Assembly: GCA_019247845.1 (NCBI GenBank)
Contig: JAFBAL010000014.1
Location: 1-58,105, forward strand
Origin: Alphaproteobacteria bacterium
Lineage (GTDB): Bacteria; Pseudomonadota; Alphaproteobacteria; Micropepsales; Micropepsaceae
Length of the DNA: 58,105 bases
Reading direction: 5' to 3'
This document shows, piece after piece, positions 1-25,097 of the stretch; the stretch's first letter is position 1; each line of letters starts with the position of its first letter. The notes beneath the pieces were generated by a model that worked only from the letters and a program-made list of their open reading frames with translations, was not told the origin of the DNA and made no database searches. Position numbers and translations under genes: made by a program.

Positions 1-429
1 CACCGACTTGCGCGGGATGATGCCGGGGGCCTTGACGTCGACTCGGCGGCGCTCGGCGACGTTCTGGATGTCGCCCAGGCCGTCGATCGGGTTGCCCAGC
101 GGGTCGACGACGCGGCCGAGCAGGCCCTTGCCGACGGGCACGTCCACGATGGCACGGGTGCGCTTGACGGTGTCGCCTTCCTTGATGGTGGCGTCGGAAC
201 CGAAGATCACCACGCCGACATTGTCGGCTTCCAGGTTCAGCGCCATGCCCTTGATGCCGCCTGGGAACTCGACCATCTCGCCGGCCTGGACGTTGTCGAG
301 GCCGTAGACGCGCGCGATGCCGTCGCCGACCGAGAGGACCTGGCCGACTTCGCTGACCTCGGCTTCGGCGCCGAAGTTCTGGATCTCGCGCTTGAGGATC
401 GCGGAGATTTCGGCGGGCTGGATATCCAT
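1..429 (-). CDS. atpA: F1F0 ATP synthase alpha subunit, N-terminal part (cut by window edge)
   Basis: The first 143 codons read [13 protein letters not shown] and continue through the beta-barrel domain of the F1 alpha subunit ([20 protein letters not shown], then [18 protein letters not shown]). The alpha subunit forms the F1 hexamer with beta and carries non-catalytic nucleotide sites. The P-loop lies beyond the window. The ATG at 429-427 is 39 bases downstream of the atpH stop, the usual atpH-atpA order of alphaproteobacterial F1 operons. The remaining F1 genes are expected off the left edge. Confidence 0.97.
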
Positions 430-1499: not shown

Positions 1500-1746
1500 A
1501 TTCGCGTATTCTCGCTTCTCCGCTCTTCTGAAACTGATCAGGCGCGTATTTTCCACGCAGCGTGAAGATGACGAGGTGCAGCCGGCCGCGAAAATATGAC
1601 AGCGCTTTGAAACGCTGCTCGTGGTCGATCAGGATATCGTCGCGAAATCGCGCCATCGGCCAATCGAATTCCTCGATGTCGGCGAAGTCGACACCGTGCT
1701 TCTTGAGATTCGAGAGGCGTTTCGACTCGTCCCATTCGTAAGACAT
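1480..1746 (-). CDS. brnT: BrnT-type ribonuclease toxin
   Basis: The 88-residue protein opens with the family hallmark YEWDESKRLSNLKKHGVDF and continues with the beta-strand core ending in EARIREYEEE, where family members carry the arginines and glutamates of the RelE-like RNase fold. It is the upstream gene of a toxin-antitoxin pair with BrnA at 1179-1499. No Shine-Dalgarno sequence precedes the ATG. Instead a TATGAT box sits at -12 to -7, so the mRNA could start at or near the ATG (inference). Confidence 0.88.
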   Translation of the reverse strand: MSYEWDESKRLSNLKKHGVDFADIEEFDWPMARFRDDILIDHEQRFKALSYFRGRLHLVIFTLRGKYAPDQFQKSGEARIREYEEEAD

Positions 1747-1759
1747 ATGTAGATCATAT
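1745..1759. promoter_or_regulatory. Inverted repeat at brnT start, candidate BrnA operator
   Basis: ATATG-TAGAT-CATAT is a 15-base inverted repeat overlapping the brnT start codon and a TATGAT-like -10 box on the minus strand. Ribbon-helix-helix antitoxins usually repress through such sites. A TTGACG lies a few bases further upstream. Operator function is inferred from position and symmetry only. Confidence 0.4.
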
Positions 1760-1902
1760 CCGAAGCCGCGTCAAGAATAAATGCACTACAATAATTCTTG
1801 CCCAACTCGCCGGGGAATTGCGTTCCGCTCTCCCATTCCGGAACCGTTTCGTAACCAGCCTTCTCAGGCGCCCGTTAAGGGCCGGTCGGGCATGCTTGCT
1901 CC

Positions 1903-2307
1903 ATGACCAGGGGCATCGCTCTCTTTCCCGCCTATGCCACGGCCGCGGTCTCGCGCGGCATCCGCGAGGCGTTCGGCGAGGTGGCGGCGCTCCTGTTCGG
2001 CAGCGCGACGTTCTCCCCGCGTCCCGCCGTCGAGAGCGACGTCCATGAACTCGTCGAGCCTCACCTGGCCATCCTCGTGCACAAGCGTTCGCGCTATGCG
2101 CCCGAGCGTTGGGCCGGTGAGCTCGACGGGTTCGTGCGTCGCACGTTCTTCTGGCCCGAGCCCGCCGTGACCGAAGCCTTCGGGCGGCTCGACCGTCATC
2201 AGCTGGCCACGCTCGTCGACCGCATCGTCGCCAACGAGCAGGACCGCCAAGCCGAAGCCGCGGCGCTGCCGCAGACCTCGCGCTTCGATTCAAGCTGGGC
2301 CGACTGA
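1903..2307 (+). CDS. Hypothetical protein
   Basis: A 134-residue acidic protein of unrecognised family beginning MTRGIALFPAYATAAVSRGI. Codons show the strong third-position G/C of neighbouring real genes, which favours this strand over the antisense reading at 1864-2250. No signal peptide, membrane segment or known motif is evident. It is predicted to be largely alpha-helical (REAFGEVAALLFG, LDRHQLATLVDRIVAN). The ribosome site is weak. Its 3' end overlaps the convergent HxlR gene by 18 bases. Confidence 0.6.
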   Translation: MTRGIALFPAYATAAVSRGIREAFGEVAALLFGSATFSPRPAVESDVHELVEPHLAILVHKRSRYAPERWAGELDGFVRRTFFWPEPAVTEAFGRLDRHQLATLVDRIVANEQDRQAEAAALPQTSRFDSSWAD

Positions 2308-2700
2308 CCTGTCGAACTTGACCTGCGCCGCGGCGAGCTTGTCCTTATTGGCGAGCGCCCAGTCGCTCAGCCGGTTCACCGGATCGAGCAGCGAGCGCCC
2401 GAGCGCGGTCAGCGCATAGTCGACGCGCGGCGGCACGGTCGGATAGATCGTGCGCGTCACCAATCCGTCACGCTCCAGCCCGCGCAAGGTCAAGGTCAGC
2501 ATGCGCTGCGAGATATTGCCGATGTCGCGGCGCAGTTCGTTGAAGCGCAGGGTGCGCTGGCCCAGCCGGCTGACCACCAGGATCGACCATTTGTCGCCGA
2601 CGCGGGCGAGCACGCCGCTAATGGCGCGGCAGTCCTCGGTCACGTGCCCGGTTGCATTACCGGCCGCGTGCCCGGTTACATCTTTGTGCTTAGGGCTCAT
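2290..2700 (-). CDS. HxlR-family winged-helix transcriptional regulator
   Basis: The 136-residue protein has the HxlR core: an N-terminal Cys (EDCRAISGVLARVGDKWSIL), then RTLRFNELRRDIGNISQRML as the recognition helix region, and a wing containing YPTVPPRVDYALTALG. HxlR/YodB-type proteins often sense electrophiles or oxidants through that Cys and control a divergent flavin reductase. The divergent NADPH-dependent FMN reductase at 2776 fits this arrangement. The 75-base spacer contains a small TGGT-A-ACCA palindrome at 2757-2765 that could be its binding site. Confidence 0.9.
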   Translation of the reverse strand: MSPKHKDVTGHAAGNATGHVTEDCRAISGVLARVGDKWSILVVSRLGQRTLRFNELRRDIGNISQRMLTLTLRGLERDGLVTRTIYPTVPPRVDYALTALGRSLLDPVNRLSDWALANKDKLAAAQVKFDRSVGPA

Positions 2701-2775
2701 CGCCGTGCCTTCTTGCGCGTTTTCCTGGCAGTCACCAGTTTATCCTCAGTAACAAATGGTAACCAGGAGAATGTA

Positions 2776-3348
2776 ATGCAACTGCACACCGTCGTCGCAA
2801 GCACCCGCCCCGGCCGGGTCGGTCCCGTCATCGCCGACTGGTTCCACGACTTCGCTGGGAAGCATGGCGGCTTCGAGCCGAAGCTGGTGGACATCGCCGA
2901 CTTCAAGCTGCCGGTCTATGACGAGCCGCACCATCCGATGCGCCGCCAATACCAGAACGACCACACCAAGGCCTGGAGCGCCTCGGTCAAGGCCGCCGAC
3001 GCGGTCGTCTTCGTGCTGCCGGAGTACAATTACAGCGCGCCGCCGGCCTTCGTGAACGCGGTCGACTATCTGTTCTGGGAATGGCAGTACAAGCCGGTCG
3101 GCTTCGTGTCCTATGGCGGCGTGTCGGGCGGGTTGCGCTCGGCCCAGACCGCGCGCTCGCTGATGAGCACCCTCAAGATGGTGCCCGTGCCCGAAGGCGT
3201 CGCGCTGCCCAACGTGTTCCAGCAGATCGAGGGCGGAAAATTTATGGCGAACAATCTCAATGAGCAGGGCGCCGCGGCGATGCTGAACGAGATGGCCAAG
3301 TGGGCGAAGGCGCTCGCACCGTTGCGCGAGGAGGTGCGCGCGGCCTAA
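2776..3348 (+). CDS. NADPH-dependent FMN reductase family protein
   Basis: The 190-residue flavodoxin-like protein has the FMN phosphate loop near the N-terminus (VASTRPGRVGPVIADW) and the family motif VFVLPEYNYSAPPAFVNAVD. It is predicted to reduce flavins or quinones with NAD(P)H in the cytoplasm. The ATG at 2776 is preceded by CCAGGAGA at good spacing; a longer in-frame reading from 2644 would run through the divergent regulator's start and is rejected. It is likely regulated by the divergent HxlR protein. Confidence 0.9.
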   Translation: MQLHTVVASTRPGRVGPVIADWFHDFAGKHGGFEPKLVDIADFKLPVYDEPHHPMRRQYQNDHTKAWSASVKAADAVVFVLPEYNYSAPPAFVNAVDYLFWEWQYKPVGFVSYGGVSGGLRSAQTARSLMSTLKMVPVPEGVALPNVFQQIEGGKFMANNLNEQGAAAMLNEMAKWAKALAPLREEVRAA

Positions 3349-14594: not shown

Positions 14595-15854
14595 TCAACT
14601 ATATCTCCGCTGCGCTTCGCGAGTCAGGCCTGACGCCACGGAAAGGAAGTCCGATCCCGCGGCGATGCGCGCGGACGGCGCCGCCGCGGCAACGGCGTCG
14701 CGCACCGCGGGCGCGCGGCTCGAGCCGCCGGTGAAGAAGATCGTCGAGACCGCATCCGCCGCCAGCCCCGCATCCGCGATGCAGCGCCGGGCGAGGGTGG
14801 TCAGGCGCGTCGTCTTCGCGGCGATGGCGCGGTCGAAGCCCGCGCGCGTCGCCGGTGCGTGCAGCCCGCTTTCCAGGAAGCCGAGCGCGATGTCGGTCGC
14901 AGCGTCGGCGCTGAGCGCGATCTTGGCATCCTCCACCGCGAAGGCGATGCGGTGGCCGAGGCGGCGCTTCAGCGTCGCGAGCAGGCGCGACGTGCGCTGG
15001 GGGCTCAGCGAATCGGCGACCAGCTCGGCCACCTCGCCCTCGTTGCGGCGCGAATAGGCGAAGTTGATCGTCGACCAGGTCGCCAGCTCGTAATAGAGGC
15101 TCTTGGGCATCGGCAGGTTCTTCGAGACCAGATCGCTGCCCAACCCGAGCAGCGGCATCACCGAATCGATGCTCAGCAGCGCGTCGAAATCGGTGCCGCC
15201 GATCCGCCCGCCGTCATTGGCGAGGATGTCGCCGGTCCTGTCGGCGCGGCCGCGGCGCTCGGGCCCGATGCGGATGACGCTGAAGTCCGAGGTGCCGCCG
15301 CCGATGTCGGCGATGAGCACGATCTCCTCTCGCGTCACACCTTCCTCGTAAGCGAAGGCGGCCGCGATCGGCTCGTAGACGAAGCTCACCTCGTGGAAGC
15401 CCGCGCGACGCGCGATATCGGCGAGCACGGACTGCGCCCGCGCATCGGCGACGTTGTCGTCGTCAACAAAGCGCACCGGGCGGCCGTGCACGACGGCGGT
15501 TATCTCTTCTCTTGCAAAGGCTTCGGCTTTGCTTTTCAGGTGCCGCACGAAGATTTCGACGACCTCGGTCAGCGGCACCATGCGGTGGCCCAAAGCCGTC
15601 TTCTCGTCGATCAGGGGCGAGGCCAGGATCGACTTCAGCGCGCGCATCAGCCGCCCCTCGGTCTGGCCGACATAGGCCGCGATCGCCTCCGCCCCGAAGG
15701 CCACGCGCCCGCGCGTCTCGTAGTCGAAGAAGACCGCGCTCGGGATCATCGTCTCGAGGCCCTCGACGGGCGCGAGCACGGGCGCGCCGCCGCGCACGAC
15801 CCCGATGGCCGAGTTGGAGGTGCCGAAATCCAGTCCGCAGGCGGTCATGTCCAT
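14595..15854 (-). CDS. Hsp70-family protein, YegD-like
   Basis: The 419-residue protein begins with the phosphate-1 motif of the actin/Hsp70 ATPase (CGLDFGTSNSAIGVV) and contains VYEPIAAAFAYEEG, phosphate-2 IADIGGGTSDFSVI and adenosine motif FFTGGSSRAPAVRDAV. It ends soon after the ATPase domain and lacks the substrate-binding domain and lid of DnaK, as in the YegD group of unclear function. A short duplicated GTTCGAAAGAGG lies just before its start region (15858-15890). Confidence 0.87.
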   Translation of the reverse strand: MDMTACGLDFGTSNSAIGVVRGGAPVLAPVEGLETMIPSAVFFDYETRGRVAFGAEAIAAYVGQTEGRLMRALKSILASPLIDEKTALGHRMVPLTEVVEIFVRHLKSKAEAFAREEITAVVHGRPVRFVDDDNVADARAQSVLADIARRAGFHEVSFVYEPIAAAFAYEEGVTREEIVLIADIGGGTSDFSVIRIGPERRGRADRTGDILANDGGRIGGTDFDALLSIDSVMPLLGLGSDLVSKNLPMPKSLYYELATWSTINFAYSRRNEGEVAELVADSLSPQRTSRLLATLKRRLGHRIAFAVEDAKIALSADAATDIALGFLESGLHAPATRAGFDRAIAAKTTRLTTLARRCIADAGLAADAVSTIFFTGGSSRAPAVRDAVAAAAPSARIAAGSDFLSVASGLTREAQRRYS

Positions 15855-17014: not shown

Positions 17015-17200
17015 ATGCTCGCCCAGCTCAAGCTCGACATCGCCGACGAGACCGAGGTCCTGGCCGCCCGTCATCTGACCCTTGTCCGCTCCAATCTTTG
17101 GGATCACGCTGAAGCCGTCACTGCCGAATGGGCCGAAGCGAACCCGGAGAAGTCGATGGCCTACCTCATGGTCACCCAGAGCGAAGACCTCCTTGGCTGA
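17015..17200 (+). CDS. Small hypothetical ORF coupled to the PHA synthase gene
   Basis: A 61-residue reading frame (MLAQLKLDIADETEVLAARH) with acidic, helical composition and high third-position G/C. An in-frame ATG at 16946 would extend it to 84 residues and has GGGAAAA just upstream. The stop overlaps the likely TTG start of phaC, so it may be a leader or coupling gene. No family is recognised, and it could instead be a non-coding leader. Confidence 0.45.
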   Translation: MLAQLKLDIADETEVLAARHLTLVRSNLWDHAEAVTAEWAEANPEKSMAYLMVTQSEDLLG

Positions 17201-18989
17201 GCAGCCGGAATATCTGCGCAACCCCGCGGGGTATGCGCTCGAGGTCTCCCGTACGCTGGGCGCCGCGGCGCTGAAAGGCCAGAAGGCCTGGACCAGCGCG
17301 ATGCAGGCCATGTGGCGCGGGCCCATGGAGATGCCCGTCGATCCGCGCGACTTCGGCAAGGCCTTCCTCGAATTCACCCAAGCCTGGGCGACCAGCCCGC
17401 AGAAGCTGTTGGAGCTGAACGCGCGCTGGGCGCAGGATTATTTCGGGCTGTGGACCATGTTCTTCCGCCGCGTCGCCGGCGAAGAGGTCGAGCCGGTGGC
17501 GACGCCCGCCGCGGGCGACCGCCGCTTCCGTTCGGATTCGTGGAACGACCGGCTGGCCTTCGATTTCCTCAAGCAGGCCTATCTCGTCGTCGGCCGCCAG
17601 CTTCAGGATCTCGTCGCGGCGACGCCGGAGATGAATCCCGAGAGCCGCGCCAAGGTCGACTTCTTCGTCCGCCAATACGTCAACGCGGTCTCGCCGTCGA
17701 ACTTCGCCTCGACCAATCCCGACGTCATCGCCAAGACGCTGGCGACCGGCGGCCTCAATCTTCTGACCGGCTTCTCGAACCTGCTCGACGACCTGGCGCG
17801 GGGCGACGGGCTGGTCAAGCACCGCTCGCCGGCCGATTTCGAGCTCGGCCGCAACATCGCCGCCACCCCCGGCGCGGTCGTGTTCCAGAACGAGTTGATG
17901 CAGCTCATCCAATACGATCCGTCTACGGACAAAGTGGCGAAGCGCCCGATCCTGTTCATCCCCCCTGTGGTCAACAAGTTCTATCACTTCGACCTGTCGC
18001 CCCGGACGAGCTTCCTGAAATGGCTGGTCGACCAGGGCTACACCGTGTTCGTGATCTCGTGGGTGAACCCCGACGCCAGGCTCGCATCGATGGGCATCGA
18101 TGACTATGTGGGGCTCGGCCCGCTCGCGGCGATCGACGCGATCCGCGACGCGACCGGCGAAGAGAGCGTCAACGTCGCCTCGTTCTGCATGGGCGGCACG
18201 CTCACCGCGGCGACGCTCGCCTGGCTGGCGGCGAAGGGCCATGGCGACCGTGTCGCTTCGGCGACGATGATCGCGACCTTGCTCGACTTCACCGCGATGG
18301 GCGACTTCTCGGTGTTCGTGTCGGACGCGCATATCCAGGCGATGCGGAAATATCTGGAGAAACGCGGCTTCGTCGACGCCAACGACCTGACGCGGCTGTT
18401 CAGCGTGGTGCGCGCCAACGACCAGATCTGGTCGCCCGCGGTCAGCCACTATCTGATGGGCCAGGAGTCGGCGCCGTCGGATCTGCTCTACTGGTTCGCC
18501 GACGGCGCGCGCATTCCGGAGCGCATGCTCAACGACGTGAACGCGAACTTCGTGCACGGCAACAAGCTGCGCGAGCCCGGCGCGGTGACGGTCGGCGGCG
18601 TGGCGCTCGATCTCACGAAGGTGACGACGCCGGTGTACCTGGTCTCGCTCAAGGACGACCACGTCGCCGAGTGGCGCGGCACCTATCTCGGCACCCAGCT
18701 CTTCGGCGGGGAGACGCATTTCCTGCTCGGCGGCTCCGGCCACAACGCGGGCACCCTGAGCGCGCCGAGCGCCAACAAGCACGGCTACTGGTTCAATGAA
18801 GCGCCGACGCCCGCCGACGCGGACGCCTGGCTTGCAGGCGCCAAGAAATACGAAGGCTCGTGGTGGCCGCGCTGGGAGCAGTGGCTCAAGACGCTCTCCG
18901 GCGGAGAGGTGGCGGCGCGCAAGGTCGGAAGCGGCAAGCTCAAGCCGATCGAGCCGGCGCCGGGCAGCTATGTGAGGATGCGATCGTAG
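17193..18989 (+). CDS. phaC: Class I polyhydroxyalkanoate synthase
   Basis: PhaC polymerises 3-hydroxyacyl-CoA into polyester granules. The 598-residue protein is of class I length, with catalytic C332 in ASFCMGGT, D489 (SLKDDH) and H517 (GGSGHNAG), and the segments FIPPVVNKFYHFDLSP and GYTVFVISWVNPD. The usual lipase box G-x-C-x-G has Ser in place of the first Gly. The start is inferred as TTG 17193: the in-frame upstream reading to 17082 looks like the shadow of the preceding ORF. Confidence 0.92.
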   Translation: MAEQPEYLRNPAGYALEVSRTLGAAALKGQKAWTSAMQAMWRGPMEMPVDPRDFGKAFLEFTQAWATSPQKLLELNARWAQDYFGLWTMFFRRVAGEEVEPVATPAAGDRRFRSDSWNDRLAFDFLKQAYLVVGRQLQDLVAATPEMNPESRAKVDFFVRQYVNAVSPSNFASTNPDVIAKTLATGGLNLLTGFSNLLDDLARGDGLVKHRSPADFELGRNIAATPGAVVFQNELMQLIQYDPSTDKVAKRPILFIPPVVNKFYHFDLSPRTSFLKWLVDQGYTVFVISWVNPDARLASMGIDDYVGLGPLAAIDAIRDATGEESVNVASFCMGGTLTAATLAWLAAKGHGDRVASATMIATLLDFTAMGDFSVFVSDAHIQAMRKYLEKRGFVDANDLTRLFSVVRANDQIWSPAVSHYLMGQESAPSDLLYWFADGARIPERMLNDVNANFVHGNKLREPGAVTVGGVALDLTKVTTPVYLVSLKDDHVAEWRGTYLGTQLFGGETHFLLGGSGHNAGTLSAPSANKHGYWFNEAPTPADADAWLAGAKKYEGSWWPRWEQWLKTLSGGEVAARKVGSGKLKPIEPAPGSYVRMRS

Positions 18990-20033: not shown

Positions 20034-21278
20034 ATGACGTCCGAAATCGCGGTGATGAACCAGCGCGCGGTGGCGCTTGCGGCCGATTCTGCCGTGACGC
20101 TGATCGACGGCGGCACGGTCGTCGTGCGCAACGACCAGCGCAAGCTCTACAACCTGTTCGAAGGCCGCCCGGTCGGCGTGATGTTCTTCGGCGTCGCCGA
20201 CATCATGGGCCATCCCTGGGAGCACCTGATCGACCACTACCAGAAGAAGATGAAGCCCAAGCCCTTCGCGCATCTGGGCGACTACGCGGCGAGCTTCACC
20301 GGCATGCTCGACCATCTGGACGAGTTCTTCCCCGCCGACCGCCAGAAGGACGACTACAAGCGCCTGCTCGCCTCGGTCTACCGCTACGTCTTCCACCTGG
20401 CGCAGTACCTGCGCGAGACCGGGGACGAGGGCATCTCGGACGCGGCCATCCTGACCGAGGCGATACAGCGCATCTGGCACGACTACCAGTTCAAGGACGA
20501 CAACACGCCGCGCGCCGACCTGGCCTGCTTCCCGCAGGGCTTCGCGGCCAAGGTGACGCGCGAGCACGCCGCCACGATCGACGAGCTGATCGCCTATGGC
20601 TTCTCGGGCTTCGCGCTGGCGCCGGACGTCATCGCCAAGCTCAAGGACATCGCGGTCTTCGCGGTGGTCAAGGACCTGTTCCTGGAGGATGTGACGGGGC
20701 TCGTCTTCGCGGGCTTCGGCACCGGCGACCGCTATCCGGTCTGCGTCACCTATCTGCTCTCGGCCATCGTCTGCGGCATCGTCAAGCGCAGCCAGGCCTC
20801 GGCCGACGTCATCGACACCGAGATCCGTTCGAAGATCCGCATGTTCGCCGACAGTGAGGTCACCCACGCCTTCATCCGCGGCATCGACTACGGGCTGGAG
20901 CGGCGCGTCTATGGCGCGATGCGCATGATGCTGCACACCCTGGTCGACCAGGTGGTCGGCGCCTTCCCGCAGGCGAACGACGGCCAGCGCGAGCAGGTGC
21001 GCAAGCAGTTCCAGGAAGGCCTTGTGCCGCAATATCTGGATGCATTCCGCGGCATGATCGGCGATTATCAGCAGCAGGCCTATATCAACCCCGTGCTGCG
21101 CGTGCTCGAGATCGCAGCGCGCAACGAGCTGGCCGAGACGGCGCGGGAGCTGGTGAGCCTGAACGTGTTCAAGAAGCGGATCATGGCGCAGAAACAGACC
21201 GTGGGCGGTGCGATCGACGTGGCCGTGATCAGCCGCGATCACGGCTTCCAATGGTTCACCAGGCAGGATGGAGCGTGA
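20034..21278 (+). CDS. Predicted proteasome/HslV-like Ntn-hydrolase with long C-terminal extension
   Basis: A 414-residue protein of no named family. If the initiator Met is removed, the N-terminus is Thr1 (TSEIAVMNQRAVALAADSAV), with Asp exactly at position 17 and Lys at 36 in QRKLYN. These align with the Thr1, Asp17 and Lys33 catalytic residues of proteasome beta subunits and HslV. VGVMFFGVADIMG fits the Gly47 strand, and LVFAGFGTGDRYPVCVTY fits a later Ntn strand pair. About 200 further residues have no recognised domain. The ATG has GGGTAGGGG upstream. A small unknown gene follows after 5 bases. The fold is inferred from pattern only. Confidence 0.6.
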   Translation: MTSEIAVMNQRAVALAADSAVTLIDGGTVVVRNDQRKLYNLFEGRPVGVMFFGVADIMGHPWEHLIDHYQKKMKPKPFAHLGDYAASFTGMLDHLDEFFPADRQKDDYKRLLASVYRYVFHLAQYLRETGDEGISDAAILTEAIQRIWHDYQFKDDNTPRADLACFPQGFAAKVTREHAATIDELIAYGFSGFALAPDVIAKLKDIAVFAVVKDLFLEDVTGLVFAGFGTGDRYPVCVTYLLSAIVCGIVKRSQASADVIDTEIRSKIRMFADSEVTHAFIRGIDYGLERRVYGAMRMMLHTLVDQVVGAFPQANDGQREQVRKQFQEGLVPQYLDAFRGMIGDYQQQAYINPVLRVLEIAARNELAETARELVSLNVFKKRIMAQKQTVGGAIDVAVISRDHGFQWFTRQDGA

Positions 21279-21283
21279 GGACG

Positions 21284-21841
21284 ATGTCCGATCCGTTCAA
21301 GTTCGACGTGAAGCCCCGAAGCGGCGCGCTCGCCGACGCCGCCGACCGCCTCGAGCGCGTCGCCAGCGTGGTCAAGGACCAGCAGCTGCAGCGTATCCAG
21401 TCCGGCGGGGTGCGCCGGCCGGAAAGCGAGGCCTATGTCTCCAGCCCCGAGGAAGCCTGGTCCAAGAAGTACATGATCCAATGCGTGGGCCCGGTCTGCA
21501 CGGTGCGGCCGACGGACGAGGGGGCGCTGCTGCTGCCCCGTTTCCAGCCCGAGCCCAAGGCCGAGGCGCAGATGCCGGCCGCCATACAGCAGGCGCCTTC
21601 GGCGTCCGTCTTGCCGTCGATGGCATCGCCCGCTGCCGATCACCCGCCTTTTGTCGGGCCGCAGGTGCCGGCCCATTCCGCACCCGCCGCGCAAATGGCT
21701 GAAATCGTTAGGGTTTTGGCAGAGACGCCGCCGCCCAAGCCGGCCCGGCGCGGTGCCAAGGTCCAAGCCGAGCCGATCGGGCTTGCGATCGGAAAGAATG
21801 TGCGCAAACGCTCCTTGCTCGGACGCATGTTCGGCCGCTAA
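21284..21841 (+). CDS. Unknown protein following the Ntn-hydrolase-like gene
   Basis: A 185-residue protein with no signal peptide. The first 80 residues look folded (ADAADRLERVASVVKDQQLQ, EEAWSKKYMIQCVGPVCTV), the middle is a Pro/Ala-rich linker, and the end is basic (NVRKRSLLGRMFGR). ATG 21284 has GAGG at 21277-21280. It begins 5 bases after the preceding stop, so it is probably a partner or substrate-related protein of that enzyme. No family is recognised. Confidence 0.6.
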   Translation: MSDPFKFDVKPRSGALADAADRLERVASVVKDQQLQRIQSGGVRRPESEAYVSSPEEAWSKKYMIQCVGPVCTVRPTDEGALLLPRFQPEPKAEAQMPAAIQQAPSASVLPSMASPAADHPPFVGPQVPAHSAPAAQMAEIVRVLAETPPPKPARRGAKVQAEPIGLAIGKNVRKRSLLGRMFGR

Positions 21842-21898: not shown

Positions 21899-22420
21899 AT
21901 GAAAGGTATGAAGGCCTTGCTGGCCGCCTTCGTCATTGCGGCGCTCGGCACCCCGGCCGCGGCCGCCAACAGCGCGTTGAGCCCCGAGGCCAATGCCAAG
22001 TTCCTGGCCGACAACGCGCACTTGCCCGGCGTCGTCACCCGTCCGAGCGGGCTTCAATACAAGATCCTGCACAGCGGCTACGGCAAGCGGCCGCAGCCGA
22101 CCGACATCGTCACGGTCTATTACACGGGCTCGCTGATCAACGGCCAGGTCTTCGACGGCACCGAGCAGGGCCTGCCGGCGCAGTTTCCGGCCAACAAGCT
22201 GATCCCCGGCTGGACCGAAGCGCTGCTGTTGATGCGCGAAGGCGACAAGTGGCACATCGTGATCCCCGCCAACCTCGCCTATGGCGCGCGCGGCGCGGGC
22301 GAAGGCGCGATCCCGCCCAACCAGGTGCTGATCTTCGATCTCGAGCTCGTCACGGTCACGACGCCGAAGGAAGAGCCGAAGAAGCCCGAGGACACCTCGA
22401 CCGGCAACCAGGATCTCTAA
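21899..22420 (+). CDS. Exported FKBP-type peptidyl-prolyl isomerase
   Basis: The 173-residue protein has a signal peptide (MKGMKALLAAFVIAALGTPAAA), a short spacer with the FKBP lead-in VVTRPSGLQYKIL, and one FKBP domain (VTVYYTGSLINGQVFDGT, LIPGWTEALLLMREGDKW, IPANLAYGARGAG, LIFDLELV). It is predicted to help fold periplasmic proteins. An AAGGAG ribosome site precedes the ATG. It lies 10 bases upstream of the glucan-synthase gene and probably shares its transcript. Confidence 0.92.
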   Translation: MKGMKALLAAFVIAALGTPAAAANSALSPEANAKFLADNAHLPGVVTRPSGLQYKILHSGYGKRPQPTDIVTVYYTGSLINGQVFDGTEQGLPAQFPANKLIPGWTEALLLMREGDKWHIVIPANLAYGARGAGEGAIPPNQVLIFDLELVTVTTPKEEPKKPEDTSTGNQDL

Positions 22421-22430
22421 GGCTGTCCTG

Positions 22431-25097
22431 GTGGAACGGTTGTTCGAGCGCTTTCGCCGCCTGCTTCCCCAAGGGGAGCGCGGCGGAACCGCGCGCATCG
22501 CCATCGCGCTCGTGCTCGTCGTGGGCGCCAGCGCGATGTTCTGGGCGAGCCGCGACTACAGCGTCTCGGCGCCGGAATGGGACGGGCAGGTGCGCGGCAT
22601 CGCCTACAATCCCAGCCACATCTTCACCAAGCAGGACGCGCTCGAGATCGCGCCCGAGCAGATCGACCGCGACATGGCGCAGCTCGCCCATGTCACAGGC
22701 CGCGTGCGCACCTATACGGTGGCGCACGGCATGGACAAGGTGCCCGAGATCGCCGCGCGCTACGGGCTGACCACCTCGCTCGGCATCTGGATCGGCCCCG
22801 ACGCCGAGCTCAACGAGAAGGAGATCGAGCTCGGCATCGCCACGGCCAAGGCCAACCGGCGCACCATCGACCGCGTCTTCGTCGGCAACGAGGCGATCCT
22901 GTTCAATTTCGTGACGCCCGACCAGCTCAGCGCCTATATCCGCCGCGTGCGCGCCGCGCTTCCCGCGCGCATCAAGATCACCACCGCCGAGCCGTGGTCG
23001 ACCTGGCTGCTGACGCCCGAGCTCGGCAAGAACGTCGACGTCGTCGCGGTGCATCTGCTGCCCTATTGGGAGGGCACATACGTCAACAACTCGCTCGACT
23101 TCCTGCAGCGCGCCTATGGCGACGTGCAGCAGGAGTTCCCCGACAAGCCCATCATCATCGGCGAGGCGGGCTGGCCGTCGGAAGGCCGCACCAAGAACGC
23201 CGCCGAGGCGAGCCGCGCCAACGAGGCCTATTTCATCCGCGGCTTCGTCCAGCTCGCGATGGAGCAGGGCTACGACTATTACATCATGGAGGGCTACGAC
23301 CAGCCCCAGAAGGTCAGCAACGAAGGCGCGGTCGGCGCCTATTGGGGGATGTTCGACGCCAACGGCAATCCCAAGTTCACCTTCACCGGGCTGGTGCGCA
23401 CCTTCCCCGAATGGCGCACCTATGCGCTGGTCGCCGCGGTCCTGACCGCGATGCTGGGCCTGCTCGTGCTCGGACGCATGCCGCGCGTGCGCCAGCCGGG
23501 CTATCTCGTCATGGGCGCGCTGATCGCGATGGTCTCCACCGGGCTGCTCGCGGTGATCGACGCGACCACCCTCGAATATATCGACCGCGGCGACCTCTTG
23601 ATGATCTTCGCGATGTCGCCCCTGGTGCTGCTGGCCTGCGCGGTGATCCTGACCGAGGGGGTGGAGCTCGCGGCGTCGCTGTGGCGCGTCGAGCGCCGGC
23701 GCGTCGCCTCGGCGATCCCGGAAGAGAGCCCGCGCGTCTCGATCCACGTGCCCTGCTACAACGAGCCGCCGCAGATGGTGATCCAGACGCTCGATCACCT
23801 GGCAAAGCTCGACTACGACAATTTCGAGGTCGTCGTCTTCGACAACAACACCGTGGACGACGCGGTGTGGCGCCCGGTCGAGGCGCATTGCGCCAAGCTG
23901 GGCCCGCGCTTCCGCTTCTTCCACGTCGAAGGGCTCAAGGGCTTCAAGGCTGGCGCCTTGAACCGCGCCATCGAGGTCACCGATCCGGACGCGCTCTACG
24001 TCGCCGTCATCGACAGCGACTATCAGGTCGAGCCCTATTGGCTGCGTCGCACCGTGCCGCTGTTCGCCGATCCCAGCATCGCGGTGGTGCAGGGGCCGCA
24101 GGACTATCGCGACTCGAACGACAGCCTGTTCAAGCGCATGGCGTACGAGGAGTATCGCGGCTTCTTCCACATCGGCATGATCGAGCGCAACGAGCACAAC
24201 GCGATCATCCAGCACGGCACCATGACCATCGTGCGCAAGACCGCGCTCGAGGAGGTCGGCGGCTGGGCGGAATGGTGCATCACCGAGGACACCGAGCTCG
24301 GCCTGAAGCTGTTCGAAGCGGGCTACGGCGCCGCCTACGTGCCGCAGAGCATGGGCAGCGGCCTGATCCCCGACACCCTGGAAGCGTTCCAGAGCCAGCG
24401 CTATCGCTGGGTCTATGGCGCGATGCAGATCATGAAACGCCATGCGGGCGCAATCTTCTTCGGCCGCGCCAAGCTCAACTGGGCGCAGCGCTATCAGTTC
24501 CTCTCCGGCTGGCTGCCGTGGATCAGCGACGCGCTCGGCATGATCGTCACGTTCCTGGGCTTGGGCTGGACTGCGGGCATGTATTTCGCGCCCGAGCACG
24601 TCTATGCGCCGATGCCCGCGCTGTCGGCCGCGGCCCTGGCGCTGTTCTGCGCCAAGACCTTCAAGACCTTCCTGCTCTATCCGCCCAAGGTGCGCTCCGG
24701 GATGAAGGGCGCGTTCATGGCCTCGGTCGCGGGACTGGCCTTGACGCATTCCGTCGCCAAGGCGGTGATCGCAGGCCTGTTCACCAAGGGCAAGCCGTTC
24801 CTGCGCACGCCCAAATGCGAGGATCCGGCGCTGCTCAGCCAGGCGCTGCGCGTGGTGTGGCAGGAGACGACCTTGTTCGTGCTCTGCATCCTGGCGGTGA
24901 TCTCGATCGCGGTGACGCATGGCGTCGAGGACACCTCCGCCGTCTTGTGGATGGTAATGCTCGCGGTCCAGAGCGTGCCTTATGCCGCGACCGTGGTGAC
25001 CGCGGTGATGAGCGCGGTCTCGAACAGCGCGCGCTCGGCGCCCCTGGCCAGCGGCACGCCGCCCGCGCCCGAACCCCAGCTGAAGGAAGCCGCATGA
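22431..25097 (+). CDS. GH17-GT2 fusion, predicted beta-glucan synthase
   Basis: The 888-residue membrane protein has an N-terminal anchor, a GH17-like domain (about residues 50-300) with the two glutamates expected of the fold, E154 (VFVGNEAIL) and E245 (IIIGEAGWPS), several membrane helices, and a processive GT2 domain with D528/D530 (VIDSDY), D620 (TEDTELG) and QRYRW at 656-660. This architecture resembles NdvB/NdvC-type synthases of cyclic beta-1,3/1,6-glucans in bradyrhizobia. The GTG start is at 22431. Its stop overlaps the next start (ATGA). Confidence 0.88.
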   Translation: MERLFERFRRLLPQGERGGTARIAIALVLVVGASAMFWASRDYSVSAPEWDGQVRGIAYNPSHIFTKQDALEIAPEQIDRDMAQLAHVTGRVRTYTVAHGMDKVPEIAARYGLTTSLGIWIGPDAELNEKEIELGIATAKANRRTIDRVFVGNEAILFNFVTPDQLSAYIRRVRAALPARIKITTAEPWSTWLLTPELGKNVDVVAVHLLPYWEGTYVNNSLDFLQRAYGDVQQEFPDKPIIIGEAGWPSEGRTKNAAEASRANEAYFIRGFVQLAMEQGYDYYIMEGYDQPQKVSNEGAVGAYWGMFDANGNPKFTFTGLVRTFPEWRTYALVAAVLTAMLGLLVLGRMPRVRQPGYLVMGALIAMVSTGLLAVIDATTLEYIDRGDLLMIFAMSPLVLLACAVILTEGVELAASLWRVERRRVASAIPEESPRVSIHVPCYNEPPQMVIQTLDHLAKLDYDNFEVVVFDNNTVDDAVWRPVEAHCAKLGPRFRFFHVEGLKGFKAGALNRAIEVTDPDALYVAVIDSDYQVEPYWLRRTVPLFADPSIAVVQGPQDYRDSNDSLFKRMAYEEYRGFFHIGMIERNEHNAIIQHGTMTIVRKTALEEVGGWAEWCITEDTELGLKLFEAGYGAAYVPQSMGSGLIPDTLEAFQSQRYRWVYGAMQIMKRHAGAIFFGRAKLNWAQRYQFLSGWLPWISDALGMIVTFLGLGWTAGMYFAPEHVYAPMPALSAAALALFCAKTFKTFLLYPPKVRSGMKGAFMASVAGLALTHSVAKAVIAGLFTKGKPFLRTPKCEDPALLSQALRVVWQETTLFVLCILAVISIAVTHGVEDTSAVLWMVMLAVQSVPYAATVVTAVMSAVSNSARSAPLASGTPPAPEPQLKEAA

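What the first reader, a model, noticed from the sequence alone, without database searches (positions are those of the whole stretch)
20034..21841. Possible new proteasome/HslV-like Ntn-hydrolase with an unknown partner gene
After removal of the initiator Met, the 413-residue protein has Thr at position 1, Asp at exactly 17 and a Lys at 36 in RKLY, matching the catalytic Thr1/Asp17/Lys33 geometry of proteasome beta subunits and HslV, with a Gly-containing strand (VMFFGVADIMG) where Gly47 is expected. Unlike HslV (about 175 residues) it has a roughly 200-residue extension, and no ATPase (HslU, Mpa) is adjacent. A 185-residue protein with a Pro-rich linker and basic tail follows 5 bases later. 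The pattern is seen in the sequence; the fold and activity are inferred.
Basis: partly seen in the sequence, partly recalled or inferred. Interest (0 to 1): 0.88.

Follow-up and report, generated by a model that had tools for sequence, protein, structure and literature searches.

The report
Proteasome-like enzyme with small partner gene
A bacterial gene predicted to make a proteasome-like enzyme sits directly before a small gene, and a small gene also follows this kind of enzyme in most of the bacterial, archaeal and phage relatives sampled, so the small protein likely helps or controls the enzyme.

The parts
20034..21278 (+). Predicted proteasome-fold Ntn hydrolase, 414 aa (stop included in coordinates)
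   Evidence: PHROG 5990 E 1.4e-68 over residues 1-411
20037..20039 (+). Thr2, predicted nucleophile after Met removal (proteasome Thr1)
   Evidence: Thr 112, Ser 1 of 113; structural alignment of model 2..411 to beta5 chain 1..191
20085..20087 (+). Asp18 (proteasome Asp17)
   Evidence: 113 of 113 (partly selected by the search pattern); 13 of 13 in A2
20142..20144 (+). Lys37 (proteasome Lys33)
   Evidence: 113 of 113; 13 of 13
20190..20192 (+). Gly53, probable Gly47 (oxyanion) equivalent
   Evidence: Gly in 94 of 113; equivalence inferred from sequence register
20307..20693 (+). Insertion 1, residues about 92-220, helices 101-212, after H1/H2
   Evidence: AlphaFold2 secondary structure
20961..21119 (+). 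Insertion 2, residues about 310-362 (helix 316-359), between H3 and H4
   Evidence: AlphaFold2 secondary structure; H3/H4 assigned by order
21213..21275 (+). Last strands and C-terminus; the IKRKHYFxPELN tail of other relatives is absent
   Evidence: tail regex 0 of 22 in window clade, 0 of 7 Maricaulaceae type, 41 of 45 other cellular, 38 of 39 viral
21284..21841 (+). Partner gene, 185 aa, starts 5 nt after the enzyme stop
   Evidence: 102 database proteins, itself and one probable chimera included; homolog behind the enzyme in 20 of 20 loci L011-L030 and 27 of 27 same-genus loci L177-L203, of which 20 have the same scores as L011-L030 and seem to be the same loci, 7 being further ones; dN/dS 0.28 and 0.24 against L011 and L012
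21326..21400 (+). Partner N-terminal helix, residues 15-39
   Evidence: only confident part of the model (10-residue blocks 11-40: pLDDT 76, 94, 87)
21443..21493 (+). Partner block SPEEAWSKKYMIQCVGP, residues 54-70
   Evidence: S54, P55, W59, G69 and P70 invariant in 57 rows
21773..21838 (+). Partner basic-hydrophobic C-terminal block PIGLAIGKNVRKRSLLGRMFGR
   Evidence: I165, G166, K171, R174 and R181 invariant in 57 rows; mean net charge of last 15 residues +5.9 in 121 rows
21899..22420 (+). FKBP-type peptidyl-prolyl isomerase-like gene downstream (named from recall of the motif)
   Evidence: ORF; FKBP-like motif within 1.4 kb downstream in 13 of 20 relatives by regex, plus L024 seen

Best explanation
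The 414-residue protein is predicted to be a proteasome-fold threonine hydrolase, very probably of the PMI-4 group, and it is encoded directly before a small gene whose product likely binds the enzyme and acts as its dedicated regulatory or docking subunit. Proposed working: (1) inferred: methionine aminopeptidase removes Met, exposing Thr2 without any propeptide; (2) predicted from fold and conservation: Thr2, Asp18 and Lys37 form the catalytic centre, used for peptide-bond cleavage or transfer; (3) inferred: the two helical insertions prevent an HslV-style closed double ring, so the enzyme works without an ATPase; (4) shown: a small same-strand ORF follows the enzyme gene in most sampled relatives, and in the two clades tested it is under purifying selection; (5) inferred: the partner docks through its conserved helix and aromatic block and controls access to Thr2 or brings the enzyme to its site, and in the window's clade its basic-hydrophobic C-tail stands in for the tail that the enzyme lacks.
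For: Fold. Catalytic residues. Weak sequence link: a profile of 113 relatives meets archaeal proteasome beta 1pma_B at E 0.0085 at both ends (a designed helical protein ranks above it at 0.0039), and 7 of 113 members meet PF00227 on their own at E up to 0.1, best 2.4e-4. Partner in the window's clade: 20 of 20 loci and 7 of 7 further same-genus loci; in 96 genomes of the family the partner was found in 19, always beside the enzyme and never without it, by a single-sequence search that misses diverged partners; 28 of the 120 listed enzyme relatives share their longest-contig length with a partner relative (my comparison). Other clades: 14 of 14 Maricaulaceae-type loci have a same-strand gene there, 13 ending in a basic-hydrophobic tail such as KKRKKFLGIF, L060 missed by the regex; an HMM of the 60-aa type against 31,320 six-frame segments of 160 loci gave 30 hits at E < 0.05 in its first round, 17 not in the seed, all behind an enzyme, first hit elsewhere at E 2.3. 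Small ATG ORF within 40 nt: 105 of 118 enzyme loci against 125 of 445 control genes, Fisher p 2e-34; with GTG and TTG allowed, 112 of 118 against 209 of 445. dN/dS of partners 0.10-0.48 over 12 pairs. Tail loss; the two tail-less clades form one group, SH-aLRT 99.
Against: No complex was modelled and no activity is known. The partner types are not detectably homologous (hhalign probabilities 0.7%, 0.7% and 1.6%), so a common docking mode is inferred from position only. The partner model is poor (pLDDT 62, pTM 0.28). The aromatic motif of the 60-aa type occurs in 7 of 29 other cellular, 3 of 47 viral and 0 of 17 window-clade partners, so it is no general signature. 13 of 118 loci lack a small ATG ORF in the slot, and for the Maricaulaceae type alone the contrast is weak (9 of 10 against 19 of 42, p 0.011). 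Control genes came from a simple greedy ORF caller. Selection was tested only in the window's clade and the Maricaulaceae type. Proteasome Ser169 is Val in 112 of 113, so the active site is not fully proteasome-like. Position 53 (Gly47) is not Gly in 19 of 113.
Confidence: 0.5

Rival explanations
1. The pair is a mobile inhibitor-enzyme module: the small protein holds a harmful protease in check, and prophages and satellites carry the pair as an anti-phage or lysogen-maintenance function.
For: In 8 of 13 INPHARED records, several of them near copies, the gene ends within about 200 nt of the record's end (annotated regions); in a Providencia phage it lies between a DNA adenine methylase and the holin; 9 of 5426 E. 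coli genomes have a full-length copy and the features under the match include antiterminator Q, and in strain H3 it is on the opposite strand to its neighbours; viral rows need 11 label changes on a quick tree, at least 3 forced. Small, fast-changing partners fit an inhibitor. Some cellular neighbours match PADLOC families.
Against: In the window's clade the genes often keep the FKBP-like neighbour (13 of 20) and are under purifying selection. No PADLOC match of the enzyme or partner itself. The PADLOC neighbour scan had no control, so it shows no enrichment. In a Porphyromonas phage the gene lies among head and neck genes. Enzyme-first gene order is unusual for toxin-antitoxin pairs (recalled).
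Confidence: 0.2
2. The partner is the enzyme's dedicated substrate or tag: the enzyme cuts or ligates it, as connectase (a related protein ligase) does with its recognition sequence or as Pup is attached in Actinobacteria (recalled).
For: A relative of this fold, connectase, is a specific protein ligase (PMC8665760). The window's partner is largely disordered and carries short conserved blocks between variable linkers; partners are closely co-encoded.
Against: Connectase's S3/S4 two-helix insertion is absent here (strands 21-25 and 28-32 are adjacent). I found no motif shared by the partner types that could be a common cleavage site.
Confidence: 0.15
3. The small gene is only a neighbour in the transcript with no joint function.
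For: Partner types show no detectable homology; small ATG ORFs follow 28% of control genes too.
Against: 105 of 118 against 125 of 445; two independently built partner profiles hit significantly only beside the enzyme; partner never found without enzyme in 96 genomes.
Confidence: 0.15

Closest known systems
PMI-4, proteasome homolog with multiple insertions (Fuchs, Alva, Lupas 2021, PMC8665760)
   Same: Catalytic Thr/Asp/Lys, proteasome core, insertions after H1/H2 and between H3/H4, no propeptide, presence in many bacterial phyla, archaea and phages
   Different: That paper reports no telling genomic context; here a partner gene is described. The window's clade lacks the C-terminal tail common in other relatives. 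Direct comparison with the representative HDY66466.1 was not possible.
PHROG 5990 (phage protein family, unknown function)
   Same: Match over residues 1-411 at E 1.4e-68
   Different: No function or partner is given there; the window copy shows no phage gene beside it among the ORFs I read
Anbu
   Different: Anbu chains are 228-241 residues in the rows and have a C-terminal helix H5 (PMC8665760), absent here; no such large insertions
HslV/HslU
   Same: Met-Thr start, Thr/Asp/Lys
   Different: HslV is about 175 aa (recalled) and paired with HslU; this genome has HslVU elsewhere
20S proteasome beta subunit
   Different: No propeptide, large insertions, Ser169 replaced by Val in 112 of 113
Connectase
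   Same: Related fold; may work without a ring
   Different: S3/S4 helical insertion absent, H1/H2 present

Membership tests
PMI-4 (Fuchs et al. 2021) | Thr/Ser1, Asp17, Lys33 | tested here: met
PMI-4 (Fuchs et al. 2021) | Proteasome core fold with H1-H4 | tested here: met
   AlphaFold2 model and structure searches; predicted, not solved
PMI-4 (Fuchs et al. 2021) | Helical insertion after H1/H2 (site 3) | tested here: met
   helices 101-212 between H81-91 and strand 221-227
PMI-4 (Fuchs et al. 2021) | Insertion between H3 and H4 (site 4) | tested here: met
   helix 316-359 between 286-309 and 363-383; assignment of H3/H4 by order
PMI-4 (Fuchs et al. 2021) | No propeptide | tested here: met
   no upstream ATG/GTG/TTG in frame
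PMI-4 (Fuchs et al. 2021) | Broad range incl. Firmicutes, Cyanobacteria, Euryarchaeota and phages (PMI-3, the other class with both insertions, is narrower) | tested here: met
   record titles, viral loci, phages; Table 1
PMI-4 (Fuchs et al. 2021) | Sequence cluster with HDY66466.1 | not testable with these tools
   the authors' alignments and the record were not available
HslV | Pfam PF00227 match and about 175-residue subunit | tested here: not met
   no PF00227 match up to E 1 for this protein; 414 aa; PF00227 in this genome finds only the separate HslV
20S proteasome beta subunit | Ser169 beside Thr1 | tested here: not met
   Val at the position aligned with 1pma_B Ser169 in 112 of 113; number and role of Ser169 recalled
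Anbu | C-terminal helical extension H5 | tested here: not met
   model ends with strand 404-409 plus 5 residues
Connectase | Two-helix insertion between S3 and S4, H1/H2 missing | tested here: not met
   strands 21-25 and 28-32 adjacent; helices 62-72 and 81-91 present
Threonine hydrolase (activity) | Thr2-dependent catalysis | not testable with these tools
   needs purified protein

The most novel reading that the evidence does not exclude
A widespread two-component system, not found in print by my searches, in which a barrel-less proteasome-like threonine enzyme is run by a tiny, rapidly exchanged partner protein encoded right behind it; phages and their satellites spread it as an anti-phage or host-control weapon, and one alphaproteobacterial lineage domesticated it by moving the docking tail from the enzyme to the partner.
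Probability: 0.2. Interest if true: 0.9.

Novelty: new variant of a known kind. Interest (0 to 1): 0.62.

Why it matters
PMI-4 is the largest of the 22 uncharacterised proteasome-homolog classes by number of sequences in Table 1 of Fuchs et al., it spans bacteria, archaea and phages, and its describers found no context that hinted at function. A dedicated small partner gene gives a handle: something to co-express, pull down and delete. If the partner proves to be an activator, inhibitor or substrate, it would show how a proteasome-like enzyme can work with neither ring nor ATPase, and why phages carry it.

Tried and rejected
HslV-like or Anbu membership: rejected on size, insertions, missing C-terminal helix and the separate HslVU of this genome. 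Common origin of the partner types: not supported (hhalign); I had thought the window's SPEEAWSKKYM block matched the S..EYEKKYFP motif of the 60-aa type, but the profile match is 7 columns at 0.7% probability. A general aromatic motif across partners: only partly (10 of 13 seed partners, 7 of 29 other cellular, 3 of 47 viral, 0 of 17 window clade; shuffles average under 0.1). A constant third gene: none seen; no Pfam or PADLOC family was matched by more than 2 of 133 neighbours of 46 loci. PADLOC matches among those neighbours exist but had no control set, so enrichment is undecided. The partner matches no Pfam, NCBIfam or PADLOC family up to E 1 and PHROG 14748 only at E 0.22; the enzyme's only NCBIfam match, FcpA at E 0.023 (13.8 bits against a cut-off of 400), is chance. 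No RNA family above its threshold and no tRNA in the window. A small downstream gene is not annotated in two of the six phage regions I opened: L172, where the record ends at the enzyme, and L175; nor in E. coli H3. Papers: beyond Fuchs et al., the searches listed nothing that I recognised as a PMI partner or a study of phage-borne PMI proteins; only open-licence PMC text is searchable and one search showed 20 of 88, so absence from print is not proved. Of Fuchs et al. I read five of six parts of the main text, without figures or supplement; other papers were seen in listings only.

Full report
Observation. The ORF at 20034-21278 encodes 414 residues starting MTSEIAVMNQRAVALAADSAVTL; with Met removed, Thr is 1, Asp 17 and Lys 36, and a 185-residue ORF starts five bases after the stop. 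No usual start codon lies upstream in frame, so Thr2 would be exposed by Met removal alone (inferred).

Conservation. T2, D18 and K37 are invariant in 13 of 13 rows of an alignment with eight distant members found by whole-sequence search. In 113 rows T2 is Thr 112 and Ser 1, K37 is 113 of 113, D18 is 113 of 113 (partly imposed by the search pattern) and G53 is 94 of 113. Ser169 of the proteasome is Val in 112 of 113, read from the register of the 1pma_B match. The absence of a propeptide to cleave may explain this tolerance (inference).

Family. Fuchs, Alva and Lupas 2021 (PMC8665760; main text parts 1-5 of 6 read, passages) define 22 proteasome homologs. Two classes carry insertions at both sites seen here, PMI-3 and PMI-4; PMI-4 is the large class that also occurs in Firmicutes, Cyanobacteria and phages (Table 1). 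My searches show a like spread: 356 of 418 pattern hits in genome contigs encode relatives, the 80 kept running from Alphaproteobacteria to ANME archaea, Bacillota and cyanobacteria, 125 of 302 in viral contigs, 13 phage records and 10 plasmid records. Among 299 genomes of the phylum, 8, this one included, match the single sequence. I therefore file the enzyme as very probably PMI-4; the authors' sequences could not be compared directly.

Partner in the window's clade. All 20 loci L011-L030 carry a homologous small gene whose earliest start lies between 59 nt before and 4 nt after the enzyme stop. A profile that includes those 20 was searched against 24,565 six-frame segments of 205 loci: it also hits L001 and 27 of 27 same-genus loci L177-L203, always beside the enzyme; by their scores 20 of the 27 are the same loci as L011-L030 and 7 are further ones; other hits start at E 0.23, and the two more distant family members fetched, L204 and L205, have none. 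In 96 genomes of the family the enzyme is found in 40 and the partner, by single sequence, in 19; each of the 19 has it beside the enzyme and none has it alone. dN/dS is 0.10-0.48 for partners and 0.03-0.25 for enzymes over 12 pairs, four of them of the Maricaulaceae type: a real, faster-changing gene. The window partner's model has one confident helix (15-39) and is otherwise low in confidence with little structure. Three blocks are conserved: that helix, SPEEAWSKKYM.QC.GP, and the C-terminal PIG..IGKP.RKRS.LGRLF.

Partner elsewhere. All 14 Maricaulaceae-type loci (12 named as Maricaulaceae or genera of it, 2 unnamed alphaproteobacteria) have a same-strand gene in the slot, 13 of them ending in a basic-hydrophobic tail such as KKRKKFLGIF. 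In many other phyla a gene of about 60 codons follows, often with a Lys-rich start, S..E[FYW]..K[FY][FY]P and DP..[FL]G..LA. A profile from 13 seeds gave 30 hits at E < 0.05 among 31,320 segments of 160 loci; 17 were not seeds and all 30 lie directly behind an enzyme gene, counting L062, whose enzyme frame is broken. A profile search of the database lists 82 proteins of this type, seeds included, all without a Pfam domain and, where named at all, called hypothetical. In non-redundant viral loci the ORF in the slot has 35-74 codons (sequences), mostly of other types, and four of six phage regions opened carry a separately annotated 55-58-codon gene at that place. Taking small ATG ORFs that start within 40 nt of the stop, enzyme loci score 16 of 17 (window clade), 9 of 10 (Maricaulaceae type), 37 of 45 (other cellular) and 43 of 46 (viral), against 18 of 91, 19 of 42, 31 of 175 and 57 of 137 for other long predicted genes in the same loci; with GTG and TTG starts the totals are 112 of 118 and 209 of 445. 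Profile comparison finds no homology between the window, Maricaulaceae and 60-aa types, so what is conserved is the slot, not one sequence family.

Tail. Most relatives end in IKRKHYF.PELN or alike: 41 of 45 other cellular and 38 of 39 viral rows by regex; three of the five misses show nearly the same motif. It is absent from 22 of 22 rows of the window's clade and 7 of 7 of the Maricaulaceae type. These two clades form one group (SH-aLRT 99 in a quick tree with many open forks), and both have partners with a basic-hydrophobic C-terminus. That the partner's tail replaces the enzyme's tail is a conjecture.

Mobile copies. In Streptococcus phages and satellites the gene mostly lies at the end of the record (8 of 13 phage records end within about 200 nt of it, several being near copies), in a Providencia phage just before the holin, in a Stenotrophomonas phage beside the holin and against the direction of its neighbours, in a Porphyromonas phage among head genes, and in E. 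coli strain H3 beside antiterminator Q, reversed. Several of these are usual places for independently expressed cargo genes (recalled). They make a phage-related role possible but do not show it.

Mechanism. I commit to a threonine enzyme with a dedicated regulatory or docking partner at 0.5. The fold and the gene pairing are well supported; catalysis, binding and role are inferred. Inhibitor (0.2), substrate (0.15) and mere neighbour (0.15) remain.

Noticed in passing
window 14595-15854 (-): ORF that reads like an Hsp70-family (YegD-like) protein, named from recall, about 4 kb from the enzyme; Fuchs et al. mention Hsp70 with the uncapped proteasome, but linkage here was not tested.
   Followed up: no
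window 17082-18989 (+): ORF that looks like a class I polyhydroxyalkanoate synthase (recalled).
   Followed up: no
window 22431-25097 (+): Large ORF resembling a glycoside hydrolase fused to a membrane glycosyltransferase (recalled), downstream of the FKBP-like gene.
   Followed up: no
L206, open frame 1582-3072 (+): Next to the genome's HslVU, on the opposite strand, an ORF with an NLCFEWGCTGG stretch that looks like another Ntn hydrolase of the choloylglycine/ceramidase kind (recalled).
   Followed up: no
L062, 3657-5130: A Methanosarcinales copy of the enzyme has a broken reading frame (a sequencing error is possible) while the small partner ORF behind it is open.
   Followed up: no
P0222: A 221-aa database protein joins a DinB-like domain (PF12867) to the partner's PEEAWSKKYMIQCVGP block; probably an assembly chimera.
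   Followed up: no
96 genomes of the family: The enzyme is patchy even within the genus and family (29 of 60 good-quality genomes of the family); 15 of the 16 genomes G366-G381 of the same genus have no match.
   Followed up: partly
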